Assembly (NCBI RefSeq): GCF_000327485.1
Contig: NC_019943.1
Coordinates: 62,001 to 126,000 of the forward strand
Direction of reading: 5' to 3'
Length of the DNA stretch: 64,000 nt
Source of the DNA: Methanoregula formicica SMSP
GTDB taxonomy: Archaea; Halobacteriota; Methanomicrobia; Methanomicrobiales; Methanospirillaceae
Below are positions 34,265-64,000 of this stretch, piece after piece. The position numbers and the translations under genes are program-made. Within the stretch, counting starts at the first letter, position 1. Each line of letters starts with the position of its first letter. Below the pieces are notes generated by a model. The model searched no databases and was not told the origin of the DNA. It saw nothing but the letters and a program-made list of their open reading frames with translations.

Positions 34265-34522
34265 TCTATTGACTCCGTTTATCTGGAGCCAATAACAAAA
34301 TGGATTGGCGAACGTTGTCGTTTGCTTTGTATCTTTCGATGGGTTTAGCATCCAGGATACCGTGAAACAATTATTGCTTCACGCATAACATCCATCGATG
34401 TTATCGGCAAATTCCGTTTGAAAGTATTATTATTAAAGATTGTTGTAGGAAAATAGGAGGGGATAAACCAAATATCCGACTCATCTATTCCAATAGGTAC
34501 GGATGCCGTCGATAATACTCTC

Positions 34523-34993
34523 TTACCCAACCCGCTTGATCCGCGCCATCGCCTCTTTCAGCTTCTCCATCGAAGCCGCGTACGACAGCCGGATCCATCC
34601 CGGCGCATAGAACGCACTGCCCGGTGTAGCAGCCACGTGCCCCTTGTCGAGCCAGCGTGAGGCAACTTCCATATCGTCCCCTGCAACCCGGACAAAAGCA
34701 TAGAACGCACCCTCGGCCGGGGCGGTCTCGTAGCCCATCGCGTTCAGTTCGCCCATGACGTACTTCCGCCGCTTGTCAAACTCCTGCCGCATGTTCTCGA
34801 CGCAAGACTGGTCGCCTTTCAGTGCCGCAACCCCGCCCCACATGGCAAAGGTCGTGACCTGGCTGATCGAGTGCTGCTGGACCTTGGACATCTCCGTGAT
34901 GATCTCTTTCGGACCCACGGCGTACCCGAGCCGCCAGCCGGTCATCGCGTAGGCCTTCGAGAAGCCGTTGACATATTCCCAAACAGGGAACAT
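34523..34993 (-). pseudogene. 3'-end fragment of an aspC-type aminotransferase gene (copy 1)
   Basis: From about 34972 down to the stop at 34523 the frame matches the last 149 codons of the intact aminotransferase gene at 44323-45456, starting just before the PLP-lysine motif [15 protein letters not shown] count six amino-acid differences. The frame shows no frameshift or internal stop, and homology stops near the stop codon. The first eight residues after the ATG are unrelated, so the 5' two thirds of the gene are missing. It cannot form an active enzyme. Same orientation as the intact gene. Confidence 0.88.
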
Positions 34994-36902: not shown

Positions 36903-37027
36903 GCGATTTCTACCTCCATTTTTCGGAAGCATGATCCAAAATCTTCATTAGGACAGACGATAATTGGTTCATGCCTACGGGCAGGGTCGGGTTCGTCAAG
37001 TGTGCAAACTTATGTGAACCCGTCCTT
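36903..37027 (-). promoter_or_regulatory. Conserved promoter/leader, copy 1
   Basis: The upstream region matches the region at 40681-40813. The strongest block (36969-37026, minus strand) includes ACATAAGT, TGCACACTTGACGAACCC and CCTGCCCGTAGGCATGA, the last able to fold as TGCC-CGTA-GGCA. Shorter shared blocks (TTTGGATC.TGC and AAAAATGGAGGTA) run to the ribosome site. It probably holds the promoter and an mRNA leader. Confidence 0.6.
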
Positions 37028-37139
37028 TCCACTTTTCAGATCCACATTTACACTATAAATGCCATTTGATTCAAAATTTAAAATATAATTCGTTGCTCCT
37101 CCGGTATCAACAACGCGGAATAATCGCCTCGGTATAGTA

Positions 37140-40680: not shown

Positions 40681-40813
40681 GTAATTCAATACCTCCATTT
40701 TTCTCTACTAACAGAGGCACGATCCAAACATTCTATGAAGAGAAGTCTTTCATCTCATGCCTACGGGCAGGATTGGGTTCGTCAAGTGTGCATACTTATG
40801 TAAACCCCGTCCT
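40681..40813 (-). promoter_or_regulatory. Conserved promoter/leader, copy 2
   Basis: This leader is homologous to the one before the transglutaminase-like gene: the block at 40755-40813 differs from 36969-37026 at only a few positions, and the GGAGGT region is also shared. The spacing from block to start codon is similar (75 versus 67 bases). Common transcriptional or leader-mediated control is likely. Confidence 0.6.
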
Positions 40814-41121
40814 CCACTGATTGGGACGCCCTCCGGCTGTCCGCAATGAGCAGTTTGCCCCGGGATTATAAACGATTTGTCGGTCAAAACTTTACATGTC
40901 CCTGGAATACCAATCACACGAACTATTTCGTAAAAGGTATTTTTATTCACCAATAAACGAGATACGTTCGAACCTGAAAAAACCCGTTTTTTAAAAACGA
41001 GAGGAACCAACAACCCGGAGAGAGAATAAGGTTGTGATACCATGTTCTCTCCGGATCGACGGGTATCGTTTTAGATAACCGCATCACAAATACCCAATCC
41101 TTCTATAAACGTTCTCTCATC

Positions 41122-42616: not shown

Positions 42617-42722
42617 TCAACCCGACATCTGCTGAGCTGTCACCGGGTCCAGCACCTGTGCTAGGATCTGCCCGGCCATCGACATGAAGAAGGTCCAGAA
42701 GACTTTCTTCACCTGCTCTTCT
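42617..42722 (-). pseudogene. Possible remnant of an unknown coding region
   Basis: A short open stretch with no start codon encodes about 35 residues ending AQVLDPVTAQQMSG before a TGA at 42617-42619. It begins in the end of the aminotransferase fragment, in a different frame. Composition looks protein-like, but I recognise no family. It may be the tail of a gene cut when the neighbouring fragment was formed. Confidence 0.25.
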
Positions 42723-42918
42723 ACCCCACCCTCTTGATCCTCGCCATCGCCTCGCGGAGCTTCTCCATCGAAGCCGCGTACGACAGCCGGATCCATCCCG
42801 GCGCATAGAACGCACTGCCCGGTGTAGCAGCCACGTGCCCCTTGTCAAGCCAGCGTGATGCCACTTCCATTTCAGCTCCGGCAACCTTCACGAACGAATA
42901 GAGCGCACCCTCAGCCAT
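42721..42918 (-). pseudogene. 3'-end fragment of an aspC-type aminotransferase gene (copy 2)
   Basis: The last 63 codons match the end of the intact gene at 44323-45456 with about six amino-acid differences, and the match runs through the stop and some nine bases past it. Homology starts at the codons for EGA(L/F)Y. A start codon (ATG GCT GAG) happens to precede, so an intact 65-codon frame remains. It lacks the PLP lysine and cannot be an aminotransferase. It lies 119 bases from the start of the fic gene, with the intact aminotransferase gene on the other side of fic. Confidence 0.88.
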
Positions 42919-43037: not shown

Positions 43038-44123
43038 ATGGCCTTTAATCGTCTCCGTCCCAATAACGAGCTCCCGCCACTTCCTCCGGCAATAGATCTC
43101 GAAACAAAACCAATCCTGAAAAAATGTATATCGGCACACCGGGCTCTGGCCACTCTGAAAGGTGCCGGCGATCTTATTCCCAACCAGGCCATCCTCATCA
43201 ACGCTATCCCGCTTCAGGAAGCAAAAGCAAGTTCGGAGATCGAGAATATTGTCACAACAGGAGACGATCTGTACCGGGCATCCATTATCCCAAGTGCAGC
43301 AACCGATCCCCAGACAAAGGAAGTCCTGCGTTACCGGAGTGCATTACGTCGAGGATACGATCTTTTGGGTAAATACCACATCTCCAACGTTGTTCTTAAA
43401 GAGATCTGCGAGGTTCTGCTGGATCGCGAGGTCCAGATCCGCTGGTTCGGGGATACCAAGATCAAGAACCGGGCGACCGATGAGACGATATATACTGCAC
43501 CTGAAGGCGGGGATATCCTCCGTGATAAACTGGACCGTCTGGAGCAATACATCCGCGAAGGAAACTCAATTGATCCGTTAATCCGCCTCGCCCTCATTCA
43601 CTACCAGTTCGAGGCGATCCATCCGTTCGAAGACGGGAACGGGCGTACCGGGCGTATTCTGAATATCCTGTTTCTTATCGAGCGGGGACTCCTCGATATC
43701 CCCGTGTTATACCTAAGCCGCGGGATCATAGCCCGGAAAAACGATTACTACCGGTTGCTCCGTCAGGTAACGGAAGAAGGTGCCTGGGAAGAATGGATAC
43801 TCTTCATGCTCTCGGTCATTGAGGAAACATCTGTCTGGACATATGAGCGAATTCTTGCGATACGACATCTTCTTGATGAGACAACAGAGAAGTGCAAGCG
43901 TGAACTGCCATCAACGGTTTATTCAAAGGACCTGGTAGAGCTTGTTTTCGTCCAGCCATACTGCAAGACCCAGTTTGTTGTCGATGCCGGTATCGCCAAG
44001 CGCCAGACTGCGGCGAGTTACCTTCAGGAAATGGAAAAGATCGGCGTACTCGAATCCAGAAAAATTGGCCGGGAGCGGATTTACATTCATCCCGCTCTCC
44101 TCCATCTCCTGAGAGAGCCATAG
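43038..44123 (+). CDS. Fic-family protein (class II, N-terminal inhibitory helix) with winged-helix tail
   Basis: The 361-residue protein has the complete Fic motif HPFEDGNGRTGR (His195), which transfers AMP or another nucleotide part to target hydroxyls. The inhibitory motif SSEIEN at residues 65-70 places its own inhibitory helix before the Fic core (class II), so it should be self-restrained. The C-terminal 80 residues (TQFVVDAGIAKRQTAASYLQEMEKIGVLE) look like a winged helix. It is convergent with the aminotransferase gene and followed by strong hairpins. Target unknown. Confidence 0.92.
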   Translation: MAFNRLRPNNELPPLPPAIDLETKPILKKCISAHRALATLKGAGDLIPNQAILINAIPLQEAKASSEIENIVTTGDDLYRASIIPSAATDPQTKEVLRYRSALRRGYDLLGKYHISNVVLKEICEVLLDREVQIRWFGDTKIKNRATDETIYTAPEGGDILRDKLDRLEQYIREGNSIDPLIRLALIHYQFEAIHPFEDGNGRTGRILNILFLIERGLLDIPVLYLSRGIIARKNDYYRLLRQVTEEGAWEEWILFMLSVIEETSVWTYERILAIRHLLDETTEKCKRELPSTVYSKDLVELVFVQPYCKTQFVVDAGIAKRQTAASYLQEMEKIGVLESRKIGRERIYIHPALLHLLREP

Positions 44124-61058: not shown

Positions 61059-61349
61059 TCACTTTCCCTGCTTCGCTTCCTTCTTCCTTTTCTTCCCGGT
61101 CCCGAACAGCTCGTTCACCATCTTGACCGCACACAGATCCCCGCACATCGAGCAGGTGTCGATCTCCCCGTCCCGGCAGTGGATCTTTTTGGCATGGTCT
61201 CCATAGAGAGCCTGCCGGAACTGCCCGTTCCAGTCCAGCTCGTGCCGGGCCTCGGCCATTTTTACTTCGCGGTCCATCCGCCAGCCTTCAGGTTTGCGGA
61301 CGTTGGGCACTTTAACATCGGATTCGACTAGAATCTTTGACGCATTCAA
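61059..61349 (-). pseudogene. 3'-end fragment of thiC
   Basis: From about 61295 down, the frame matches the C-terminal 67 residues before the tail of the intact ThiC at 62909-64000 with about eight differences, including the CSMCGDLC cluster-binding motif. The upstream 22 residues and the basic tail (KKRKKEAKQGK) differ from the intact copy. The frame has an ATG three bases after the fic stop, so it could be translated, but it lacks the ThiC barrel. It lies on the far side of fic from the intact gene. Confidence 0.88.
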
Positions 61350-62735
61350 TCATTCAGTGTCCGGGAAGTCCTGAAGTAGGCTCTGAAGTTTATCCTTCTT
61401 TACCGGTTTGGCCTTCTGTTCCCACAGTTCAGAATGTTCGTTGAATATGAAGATAAACTCCCTCCCCCGCTGTTCCATAATGAGATATTCCAGGCTGACA
61501 AGATGCAACAGATCCGTCCTCGCTGTCTGGTAGACCACACCGAACATCTGCGAGATTTGTTTGATGGTGAAATACTCGTCAGAGTGTTCCATCATATGCC
61601 GCAGGATGGTTGCCTGACGGGGATTAATATCCCGAATCTTTGTGATGATTGCATTTGTGGCATTCTGTTCACTTTGTTTGCGTTCAAGATATCCAAGGAG
61701 ATCATCGAGTGCCTGGATTATACAGGAAATATTGTATTTAAGGAAGTACGTAATGTCATTGTCATCGTATTCCGTATACAGATACGCCAGCCCGTACTTC
61801 TTTTTCGACTTGAGGAGAATCCGGGAGATTGCCATATACTCAAATAACCAATATCCCTGTGAGAGGACGTACCAGTAGAAGATACTCCTCGCGGTCCTCC
61901 CATTCCCGTCATTGAACGGATGGAAATATCCGAAAAGATAGTGCAGGATAATTCCCTTTATTACCGGATGAATAAAATCGCCAGCTGCTCTATCTGATCC
62001 TTCCTCCTTCCGGTTCGCAAACTTGCAGAATTGCTCAATGAATCCTTCTATCTCGGCATGATCCGGTGGTGTATGGAAGATCGTCCCGTCCCCTGGATCT
62101 ACAACCACTACATCATTTTCCGTCCTGAACTTCCCGACATATGCTTCATCAATCGTGCCCTTTGTCACAATCCGGTGGATTTCCAGGATCAGTTCTTTCG
62201 TGAGCGGGGTATCCCTCTTCACCCGGATGAACCGCATGACTTCGTAATTATTGAGGATCATCTGCTCTGCATGGTTCTTTGGCTTGCGTCCCTTCCGGAG
62301 CATCTCCTTTGCAGCTTTCCGGGTCGTCGCCGCACCCTCCAGAATACTGGAAGCTATCGCCTCTTCCATAAGGGAGTTGATGATATACGACTGTTCCATC
62401 CGGATAGTCTTGTTATGGATCTGAATCGTACCTGATAGATAGCGGTCGATTGTATGCAATCCTTTGACAATTTCCGGAATGAATGAGTAGCTCAAAGAAA
62501 GTTTGGCAATCCTCGTCCGCTCATACCGCATAACCCGGAGGAATTTCATCAGCGCCCAGATTGCTTTCCTCCGTTCGGGATCCTCCACACGGAACTTCAG
62601 CTCATCCCAGAAGAGGTAACGCTGGTTGTATTCTGAAACAGCCTTCTGGAAAGCTTCGTCTTCTGAAAATTTTACATTCCCCGCATTCCAGGCGTCATCC
62701 CATTTAACCGGGGGTTTTTCAGGCAGTTTCTGCAT
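61350..62735 (-). CDS. Fic-family protein (class II) with C-terminal winged helix
   Basis: The 461-residue protein has the Fic motif HPFNDGNGRTAR (His272) and, about residue 129, SSILEG, the inhibitory [S/T]xxxE[G/N] motif placed before the core (class II). The C-terminal part contains a winged helix (TIKQISQMFGVVYQTARTDL). Proteins of this plan transfer AMP to targets and may repress their own genes. Repeated TTAGTA-type sites lie just upstream of its start. It is placed between a thiC fragment and intact thiC, like the other fic gene with aminotransferase copies, although the two Fic proteins are only distantly similar. Confidence 0.93.
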   Translation of the reverse strand: MQKLPEKPPVKWDDAWNAGNVKFSEDEAFQKAVSEYNQRYLFWDELKFRVEDPERRKAIWALMKFLRVMRYERTRIAKLSLSYSFIPEIVKGLHTIDRYLSGTIQIHNKTIRMEQSYIINSLMEEAIASSILEGAATTRKAAKEMLRKGRKPKNHAEQMILNNYEVMRFIRVKRDTPLTKELILEIHRIVTKGTIDEAYVGKFRTENDVVVVDPGDGTIFHTPPDHAEIEGFIEQFCKFANRKEEGSDRAAGDFIHPVIKGIILHYLFGYFHPFNDGNGRTARSIFYWYVLSQGYWLFEYMAISRILLKSKKKYGLAYLYTEYDDNDITYFLKYNISCIIQALDDLLGYLERKQSEQNATNAIITKIRDINPRQATILRHMMEHSDEYFTIKQISQMFGVVYQTARTDLLHLVSLEYLIMEQRGREFIFIFNEHSELWEQKAKPVKKDKLQSLLQDFPDTE

Positions 62736-62751
62736 ATGTTCCGTCTCACTA

Positions 62752-62865
62752 ACTACTAAATTAGCACAAATTAGTATTTATTAGTATTTGGTGTTTCTAT
62801 TGCATTCCGCAAAAAACTTCGCCGAAGGATCTACTAAATTAGTAGATATTAGTAGATATTAGTAG
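62752..62865 (-). promoter_or_regulatory. Cluster of TACTAA/TTAGTA operator repeats before fic
   Basis: Sites ACTACTAAATTAG (62752-62764) and ATTAGTATTTATTAGTATTT (62769-62788) lie close to the fic start at 62735. A second group begins with the near-palindrome CTACTAAATTAGTAG (62831-62845) and two further ATATTAGTAG repeats to 62865. They bracket a probable promoter. The winged helix of the Fic protein is a candidate ligand. Confidence 0.6.
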
Positions 62866-62908
62866 TTGAGAGGGATTTGAAAAATAGCTGAAAAATTTTC
62901 AGATTTAT

Positions 62909-64000
62909 TCAACTTTTGTTCTTCACGTTCTTTTTCGACCCCTTCTTTTTCCCTTGCGTCCCGAACAGCTCGTTCACCATCTTGACCGCACACAGATCCC
63001 CGCACATCGAGCAGGTCTCCGTTGCACCATCGCGCTCGTGGATCTTCCGGGCATGCTCCCCGTACAGCGCATGCCGGAACTGCCCGTTCCAGTCCAGCTC
63101 GTGCCGGGCCTCGGCCATCTTCACTTCCCGGTCCATCCGCCAGCCCTCGGGCCTCCTGACGGTGTCGCCGATGTGCGCTGCGATCTTTGCGACCCGGGTG
63201 CCTTCGATGATGTCCGCAACGTCAGGCAGGGCCAGGTGTTCGCTCGGAGAGACCATGCAGAGGAAGTCGGCACCGTTCAGGCAGGCCGCAGCCCCGCCAA
63301 TGGCCCCGACCACGTGGTCGTAGCCGGGCGCGATATCGGTAACGAGCGGGCCGAGGAGGTAGAGGGGGGCATGATCGGTGATCTCCTTGATCATCTTCAC
63401 GTTGTAGCCCACCTGGTCGAGGGGCATGTGGCCCGGGCCCTCGATCATCCGCTGGACGCCGGCTTCCTGTGCCCTCCTTGCAAGAAGGCCGAGGGTGTTG
63501 TACTCTACCGACTTTGCCAGCTTGCCAGCGTCCTGCAGGCAGCCGGGGCGCATCCCGTCGCCAAGGCTGATGGTGACGTCGTACTCGGCAAGGATCTCGA
63601 GGAGGTAGTCATACTCGGCAAAGAGCGGGTTCTCCTCCTCCCGCTGCATCATCATGGCGCAGTGGAACGATCCGCCGCGGGAGACGACGCCCATCAGCCG
63701 GGGATCGGCTTTCAGGGCGTCAAGGGCCTGGAGGTTCACGCCGCAGTGGAGCGTGAGGAAGTCGACTCCCTGGTTGCAGTGCTCGCGGATGACCTTAAAA
63801 AGCAGGTCGGCCGTGACATCGCCGGCATTTCCTGCCCGGCGTACTGCCTCGTACACGGGGACCGTGCCGACCGTTGTATCGAGTTTCAGGATCTTCTTCC
63901 GGATCGCGACCAGATCGCCGCCGGTCGAGAGGTCCATTAAGGCATCGGCGCCGTTGTCAAGCGCAGCCGTTGCCTTCTTCATCTCGAGCGCCGGGTCGCA
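62909..64000 (-). CDS. thiC: Phosphomethylpyrimidine synthase (partial, N-terminus outside window)
   Basis: The frame is open to the right edge, and 363 residues are visible. Motifs include LTLHCGVN, SRGGSF, SLGDGMRPG, RMIEGPGHMPLDQV and the C-terminal CSMCGDLC. ThiC is a radical SAM enzyme that turns aminoimidazole ribonucleotide into the pyrimidine of thiamine. About 60-70 N-terminal residues lie beyond 64000. The basic tail after LFGT (GKKKGSKKNVKNKS) differs from the tail of the fragment at 61059. It is 173 bases upstream of the fic gene on the same strand. Confidence 0.95.
   Translation of the reverse strand, partial: CDPALEMKKATAALDNGADALMDLSTGGDLVAIRKKILKLDTTVGTVPVYEAVRRAGNAGDVTADLLFKVIREHCNQGVDFLTLHCGVNLQALDALKADPRLMGVVSRGGSFHCAMMMQREEENPLFAEYDYLLEILAEYDVTISLGDGMRPGCLQDAGKLAKSVEYNTLGLLARRAQEAGVQRMIEGPGHMPLDQVGYNVKMIKEITDHAPLYLLGPLVTDIAPGYDHVVGAIGGAAACLNGADFLCMVSPSEHLALPDVADIIEGTRVAKIAAHIGDTVRRPEGWRMDREVKMAEARHELDWNGQFRHALYGEHARKIHERDGATETCSMCGDLCAVKMVNELFGTQGKKKGSKKNVKNKS

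What the first reader, a model, noticed from the sequence alone, without database searches (positions are those of the whole stretch)
61059..64000. Second fic gene with the same architecture, at thiC
A thiC 3' fragment (67 residues, about eight changes) lies at 61059-61349, then fic (61350-62735), then intact thiC. The Fic protein is a different subtype from the one near 43 kb and the target gene is unrelated, so the pattern arose independently. Two of two fic genes in 64 kb sit in this arrangement, which chance alone would not readily explain.
Basis: partly seen in the sequence, partly recalled or inferred. Interest (0 to 1): 0.88.

Follow-up and report, generated by a model that had tools for sequence, protein, structure and literature searches.

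The report
Toxin-like gene cassettes beside displaced thiC tails
In Methanoregula methanogens the end of the vitamin-B1 gene thiC is a recurrent docking place where small toxin-like genes (here a Fic gene) are inserted and swapped, leaving a diverged extra copy of the gene's tail behind; the Fic gene is one passenger among several and not the cause.

Summary
A 207-bp, 85.5% identical copy of the thiC 3' end lies downstream of fic, with intact thiC on the other side. The fic-specific reading is not supported. The genome has three fic genes and the third has no tail. Most fic genes in relatives lack one too. The thiC 3' end is a genus-wide insertion slot: other Methanoregula genomes carry MNT-HepT or AAA_14-DUF4143 genes there, several with their own thiC tail.

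Tail and intact copies differ mainly at synonymous sites (aspC 34 syn/8 nonsyn; thiC 17/13), so at least the aspC pair diverged as working genes in separate lineages, not by local duplication and decay. The fic cassette ends within a few bases of the thiC stop and of the fic stop, as shown by an 82% identical cassette at another locus in a relative without a thiC tail.

Best explanation: foreign DNA recombined at the gene's end, kept the gene whole and displaced a tail. Direction and enzymes are not shown. Precedents: insertion with long target duplication, and orphan tails at Rhs/T6SS loci.

The parts
62909..64000 (-). thiC, intact 3' part (gene continues beyond the window; complete in L049)
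   Evidence: PF01964 473 bits; full ORF seen in L049
61342..62902 (-). fic cassette: upstream control region plus fic, no transposase or integrase gene
   Evidence: 82% identical over 1578 bp to a cassette at an unrelated locus of relative G018; homology stops within about 7 bp of the thiC stop and 8 bp past the fic stop
61350..62735 (-). fic1, 461 aa; HPFNDGNGR active-site motif and SSILEG, which fits the (S/T)xxxE(G/N) inhibitory motif
   Evidence: PF02661 67 bits; motifs read from the translation
62750..62791 (-). operator-like repeat copy 1 (AAATACTAATAAATACTAAT...ATTAGTA type)
   Evidence: aligns with copy 2 and is present upstream of fic1 relatives in the order
62831..62868 (-). operator-like repeat copy 2
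   Evidence: as above
61059..61349 (-). thiC 3' tail (ORF 96 aa); DNA homology 61099-61305
   Evidence: 17.2 synonymous and 12.8 nonsynonymous differences over 67 codons
44323..45456 (-). aspC-like aminotransferase, intact (377 aa)
   Evidence: PF00155 246 bits; tblastn span
43038..44123 (+). fic2, SoFic type, antiparallel to aspC; HPFEDGNGR and SSEIEN motifs
   Evidence: PF13784, PF02661 and PF21248; motifs read from the translation
42715..42916 (-). aspC 3' tail, 202 bp, 91.6%
   Evidence: 8.5 synonymous / 8.5 nonsynonymous
34518..34971 (-). second aspC 3' tail, 454 bp, 90.5%, not mentioned in the finding
   Evidence: 34 synonymous / 8 nonsynonymous

Best explanation
The ends of some conserved genes, thiC above all, act as docking sites for small accessory cassettes (Fic, MNT-HepT, AAA_14-DUF4143, RhuM and others). 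DNA from a related methanogen, carrying a cassette next to a homologous gene end, recombines at that end in the recipient. The recipient gene stays complete, the cassette comes to lie directly after its stop codon, and one of the two gene tails (recipient's or donor's) is left stranded on the far side. The other junction is probably illegitimate (homology-facilitated illegitimate recombination), or the DNA was a circle integrated by a single crossover. The cassettes persist because they are toxin-like and self-regulated. Later cassettes replace or stack on older ones in the same slot. Shown: slot, cargo turnover, cassette ends, and (for aspC clearly, thiC moderately) tails that diverged as functional genes. 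Inferred: recombination route, donor, direction, and the toxin-like role of the cargo.
For: Cargo turnover at thiC: MNT-HepT in G001, G004, G019, G020, G022, G074, G080, G085 and G086 (MNT alone in G008); AAA_14-DUF4143 in G012 and G015; fic only in G000. Tails in G000, G001, G004, G008, G012, G015, G019, G074 and G081, of different length and 5' breakpoint. Xenologous tail: aspC pair 34 syn/8 nonsyn, p about 1e-9 against local duplication with decay of the copy; thiC 17.2/12.8, p about 0.007. Cassette ends and tail-free ortholog at an A/V-ATPase subunit gene in G018. Stratigraphy: the promoter-like element of the AAA cassette lies a few bp upstream of its start in G015, G012 and G081, yet also sits before the tail in G001, G004 and G074, where MNT-HepT is now the cargo; 10 of 11 genus-wide matches are at the thiC slot. 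Mosaic thiC 3' third in G014 shows recombination at this gene end. Other targets: Eco57I-type gene with RhuM and SLFN_AlbA_2, hsdS with HEPN, DUF4062-like gene (named by eye) with fic in G024.
Against: Which copy is foreign is not settled: intact G000 thiC resembles its nearest relative G085 along its whole length, so the stranded tail, not the intact end, looks like the stranger. This is the opposite of the simplest displacement model. It fits only if the crossover lay near the 3' end or the tail travelled with the cassette. The 202-bp aspC tail does not reject local duplication (p 0.13). The two Eco57I tails are 99% identical over 99 bp and share a frameshift, which looks like duplication in place. 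HepT genes in general are not flanked by coding tails (1 of 20, doubtful).
Confidence: 0.6

Rival explanations
1. Insertion with long target duplication: the cassette inserts and the host machinery duplicates a long stretch of the target in place; the spare tail then decays.
For: The architecture is what is described for restriction-modification genes (Nobusato 2000, title and citation seen). Eco57I tails 99% identical. The 202-bp aspC tail does not reject it.
Against: The 454-bp aspC tail (p about 1e-9) and the thiC tail (p about 0.007) show the synonymous excess of genes that evolved under selection apart.
Confidence: 0.17
2. Remnants of integrative elements that use a gene 3' end as attachment site and carry their own replacement tail, as prophage e14 does at icd; the integrase has been lost or acts in trans.
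For: The gene is always kept whole; the slot is used repeatedly; tails look xenologous.
Against: No integrase recognised among the cassettes seen at thiC. Tails start at varying distances from the gene end, roughly 75 to 250 bp, with no shared core noticed. The fic cassette in G018 has no tail.
Confidence: 0.12
3. Fic itself promotes the arrangement.
For: Two of three fic genes in the genome; modest excess of flanking repeats, 6 of 26 against 15 of 197.
Against: The same slot carries non-fic cargo with tails in many relatives. fic relatives mostly lack tails. Fic has no DNA-joining activity known to me.
Confidence: 0.03
4. The tails are under selection as small proteins and their synonymous excess reflects function, not foreign origin.
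For: The thiC tail ORF is open (96 aa), and the tail of G001 lies in an open frame that overlaps the HepT stop.
Against: Tails in G004, G008 and G015 are short or disrupted, and several have changed the CSMC motif.
Confidence: 0.05

Closest known systems
Insertion with long target duplication of restriction-modification genes (Nobusato et al. 2000; Furuta et al. 2010)
   Same: Small selfish-type gene unit, no transposase, long direct repeat of the target on both sides
   Different: Tails here diverged mostly at synonymous sites, so duplication in place does not explain the aspC 454-bp tail; targets are biosynthesis genes in a methanogen, cargo is Fic or TA-like. Original papers not held; known here from citations and memory
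Orphan 3' ends and displaced immunity genes at Rhs and T6SS loci, explained by homology-facilitated illegitimate recombination (PMC5361080)
   Same: Homologous anchor on one side, new module inserted, old 3' part displaced downstream, repeated in layers
   Different: There the target gene is itself the toxin and changes specificity; here the target is a housekeeping gene that stays unchanged in function
Prophage e14 and phage 21 at the 3' end of icd (from memory)
   Same: Element restores the gene end and leaves the old tail on the far side, with mainly silent differences
   Different: No integrase, no phage genes, variable breakpoints
Mobile toxin-antitoxin and MNT-HEPN modules of archaea (Makarova et al. 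2009, PMC2701414)
   Same: The cargo families and their patchy distribution
   Different: That paper infers mobility from distribution; here a repeated docking site and its scars are seen

Membership tests
Insertion with long target duplication | Inserted unit flanked by long direct repeats of the target | tested here: met
   207 bp at thiC, 202 and 454 bp at aspC
Insertion with long target duplication | Repeat arose by duplication of the target at insertion (identical copies at first, spare copy then neutral) | tested here: not met
   Rejected for aspC 454 bp (p about 1e-9) and thiC (p about 0.007); not rejected for aspC 202 bp (p 0.13)
Insertion with long target duplication | Empty site without repeat in related genomes | tested here: inconclusive
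   Some relatives have thiC followed directly by purE (G023, G073), but no close strain with and without the fic cassette was available
Integrative element at a gene 3' end (icd type) | Integrase gene and common core site | tested here: not met
   None recognised among the thiC cargo ORFs, of which only some were scanned with profiles; breakpoints vary
Integrative element at a gene 3' end (icd type) | Replacement tail carried by the element | tested here: inconclusive
   Tails look xenologous, but the fic cassette ortholog in G018 carries no thiC tail
Class II Fic protein | HPFx(D/E)GNGR motif and upstream (S/T)xxxE(G/N) motif | tested here: met
   Read directly from both translations; Fic domain over cut-off
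Class II Fic protein | AMP-transferring activity | not testable with these tools
   needs a biochemical assay
HFIR displacement as at T6SS/Rhs loci | One homologous and one illegitimate junction, old 3' part shifted downstream | tested here: inconclusive
   Layered slot and displaced tails seen; the exact junctions of a fresh event were not observed

The most novel reading that the evidence does not exclude
Methanoregula has a dedicated cassette-exchange site at thiC: the intact thiC end and the stranded tail act as two homologous arms between which toxin-like cassettes are exchanged among species, with an unknown recombinase or natural DNA uptake as the driver.
Probability: 0.12. Interest if true: 0.8.

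Novelty: new variant of a known kind. Interest (0 to 1): 0.5.

Why it matters
How small toxin-like genes without transposases move between genomes is an open question. A site that has been filled again and again in one archaeal genus, with scars that can be ordered in time (tails, relic promoters) and a precise cassette outline, gives a natural record of the process and a way to tell duplication in place from import with a foreign gene tail.

Tried and rejected
Fic-specific mobility: rejected by the third fic gene, fic loci of relatives and non-fic cargo at thiC. A general rule that TA genes are flanked by coding tails: not found for 20 HepT loci outside thiC (1 doubtful; controls 0 of 20), although HepT loci are rich in other direct repeats. 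Tree of thiC tails to name the donor: weak support, remnants on long branches, no donor found. Common ancestry of all thiC tails: several older tails share a start near residue 280 and the promoter-like element, but the G000 tail starts further upstream and has no recognisable element. fic1 on viral contigs: none confirmed; on plasmids only relatives below 60% identity, all in bacteria. Direct repeats at G005 (L063, 254 bp, 92%) and L037 also flank fic; no coding-tail match was found at either, and the L037 repeat overlaps the fic control region. The coding-tail comparison (3 of 27 fic loci against 3 of about 800 genes) uses an estimated denominator and is not relied on.

Full report
WHAT IS THERE. 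The window is C1:62001-126000 of a single 2.82-Mb contig. On the minus strand, intact thiC is followed by fic1 and then by a thiC 3' tail, 207 bp at 85.5% identity with no gap. The aspC-like gene at 44.3 kb has two such tails: 202 bp (91.6%) beyond fic2, and 454 bp (90.5%) about 7.7 kb further on, which the finding does not mention. fic2 runs opposite to aspC. The genome has a third fic gene without any such tail.

HOW UNUSUAL. Forty random 20-kb stretches of the genome held one comparable locus, an Eco57I-type restriction gene followed by RhuM, a tail, an AlbA_2 gene and another tail. Twenty 13-kb stretches from four relatives held none. The arrangement is therefore rare, and two target genes in 64 kb is notable.

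NOT A FIC FEATURE. Of 26 distinct testable fic loci, 6 lie between direct repeats, against 15 of 197 control ORFs, a weak excess with controls from one genome only. Only three lie between a gene and its coding tail. Conversely, thiC tails were searched in 108 genomes of the family and the thiC neighbourhood was read in detail in the genus. MNT-HepT follows thiC in nine genomes (MNT alone in a tenth), AAA_14-DUF4143 in two, fic only here. thiC tails occur in G000, G001, G004, G008, G012, G015, G019, G074 and G081. Downstream of aspC, relatives carry other accessory genes: a PIN-domain gene with a small upstream gene in G021, an RloB-like gene with an ATPase in G019 (RloB just under its curated cut-off, from a 100-residue piece). 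aspC tails themselves were found only in G000 among 61 genomes.

WHERE THE TAILS COME FROM. If a tail were made in place and then decayed, most differences from its gene should change amino acids. The 454-bp aspC tail shows 34 synonymous and 8 nonsynonymous differences, the thiC tail 17.2 and 12.8, the 202-bp aspC tail 8.5 and 8.5. With the tail neutral and the gene under selection, the probabilities are about 1e-9, 0.007 and 0.13. The first pair clearly and the second probably diverged as working genes in different lineages. The three aspC copies and that of relative G086 are close kin, so the source lies within or near the genus. Which copy is foreign is not settled: intact thiC resembles G085 along its whole length, while the tail is close to no sampled species. 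The thiC of G014 changes affinity in its last third, which points to recombination at this gene end.

THE CASSETTE. Relative G018 has fic1 at another place, downstream of an A/V-type ATPase subunit gene, inside a 7.7-kb stretch absent from its close relative G021. Its DNA matches the window from 62902 to 61342 at 82%, that is, from just after the thiC stop to just after the fic stop, and includes no thiC tail. The unit is thus a control region plus fic. The control region holds two copies of a TACTAAT/ATTAGTA repeat kept by fic1 relatives. Both Fic proteins carry the catalytic motif and an (S/T)xxxE(G/N) motif, expected of a self-inhibited Fic, which would explain the lack of a separate antitoxin gene (sequence; inference from known Fic classes).

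LAYERS. An element TGCACGAAAATAGACAAAATCGTGCATTA lies a few bases before the start codon of the AAA_14-DUF4143 gene in G015, G012 and G081, so it is probably that gene's promoter or operator. It also sits just before the thiC tail in G001, G004 and G074, where the cargo is now MNT-HepT, and after thiC in G003, where no cargo remains. Genus-wide it has 11 matches with up to three mismatches, 10 of them at the thiC slot, and none for the reversed control pattern. The simplest reading is a series of insertions in one slot, with old promoters and tails left as scars.

INTERPRETATION. The best account is import of foreign DNA by recombination at a conserved gene end, with the gene kept whole and one tail stranded, as proposed for orphan 3' parts at Rhs and T6SS loci (PMC5361080). 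The donor, the enzymes and the direction are inferred. Duplication in place remains possible for some tails, above all the two near-identical Eco57I tails. Cargo is called toxin-like from family membership only.

Noticed in passing
window 34518-34971: A 454-bp aspC 3' tail 7.7 kb beyond the first one; the ORFs between them look like secreted and membrane proteins, not toxin-like genes (read by eye).
   Followed up: partly
L161 11303-17910 (G000:C1:1706303-1712910): Eco57I-type gene followed by RhuM, tail, SLFN_AlbA_2 gene, tail; the two tails are 99% identical over 99 bp and share a frameshift.
   Followed up: partly
L207 14060-16533 (relative G001): hsdS gene with a 91-bp tail copy and a HEPN gene between them.
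   Followed up: partly
L118 (relative G081), thiC slot: Two copies of the promoter-like element and apparently two thiC tails around an AAA_14-DUF4143 gene: stacked insertions.
   Followed up: partly
HepT loci L210-L229: HepT gene regions are rich in intergenic direct repeats compared with control stretches; nature of the repeats unknown.
   Followed up: no
window 36969-37033 and 40755-40818: A 66-bp direct repeat at 89% identity, near the starts of genes for apparently secreted proteins.
   Followed up: no
L063 7078-7329 and 10435-10686 (relative G005): 254-bp repeat at 92% identity flanking another fic gene; no coding-tail match found.
   Followed up: partly
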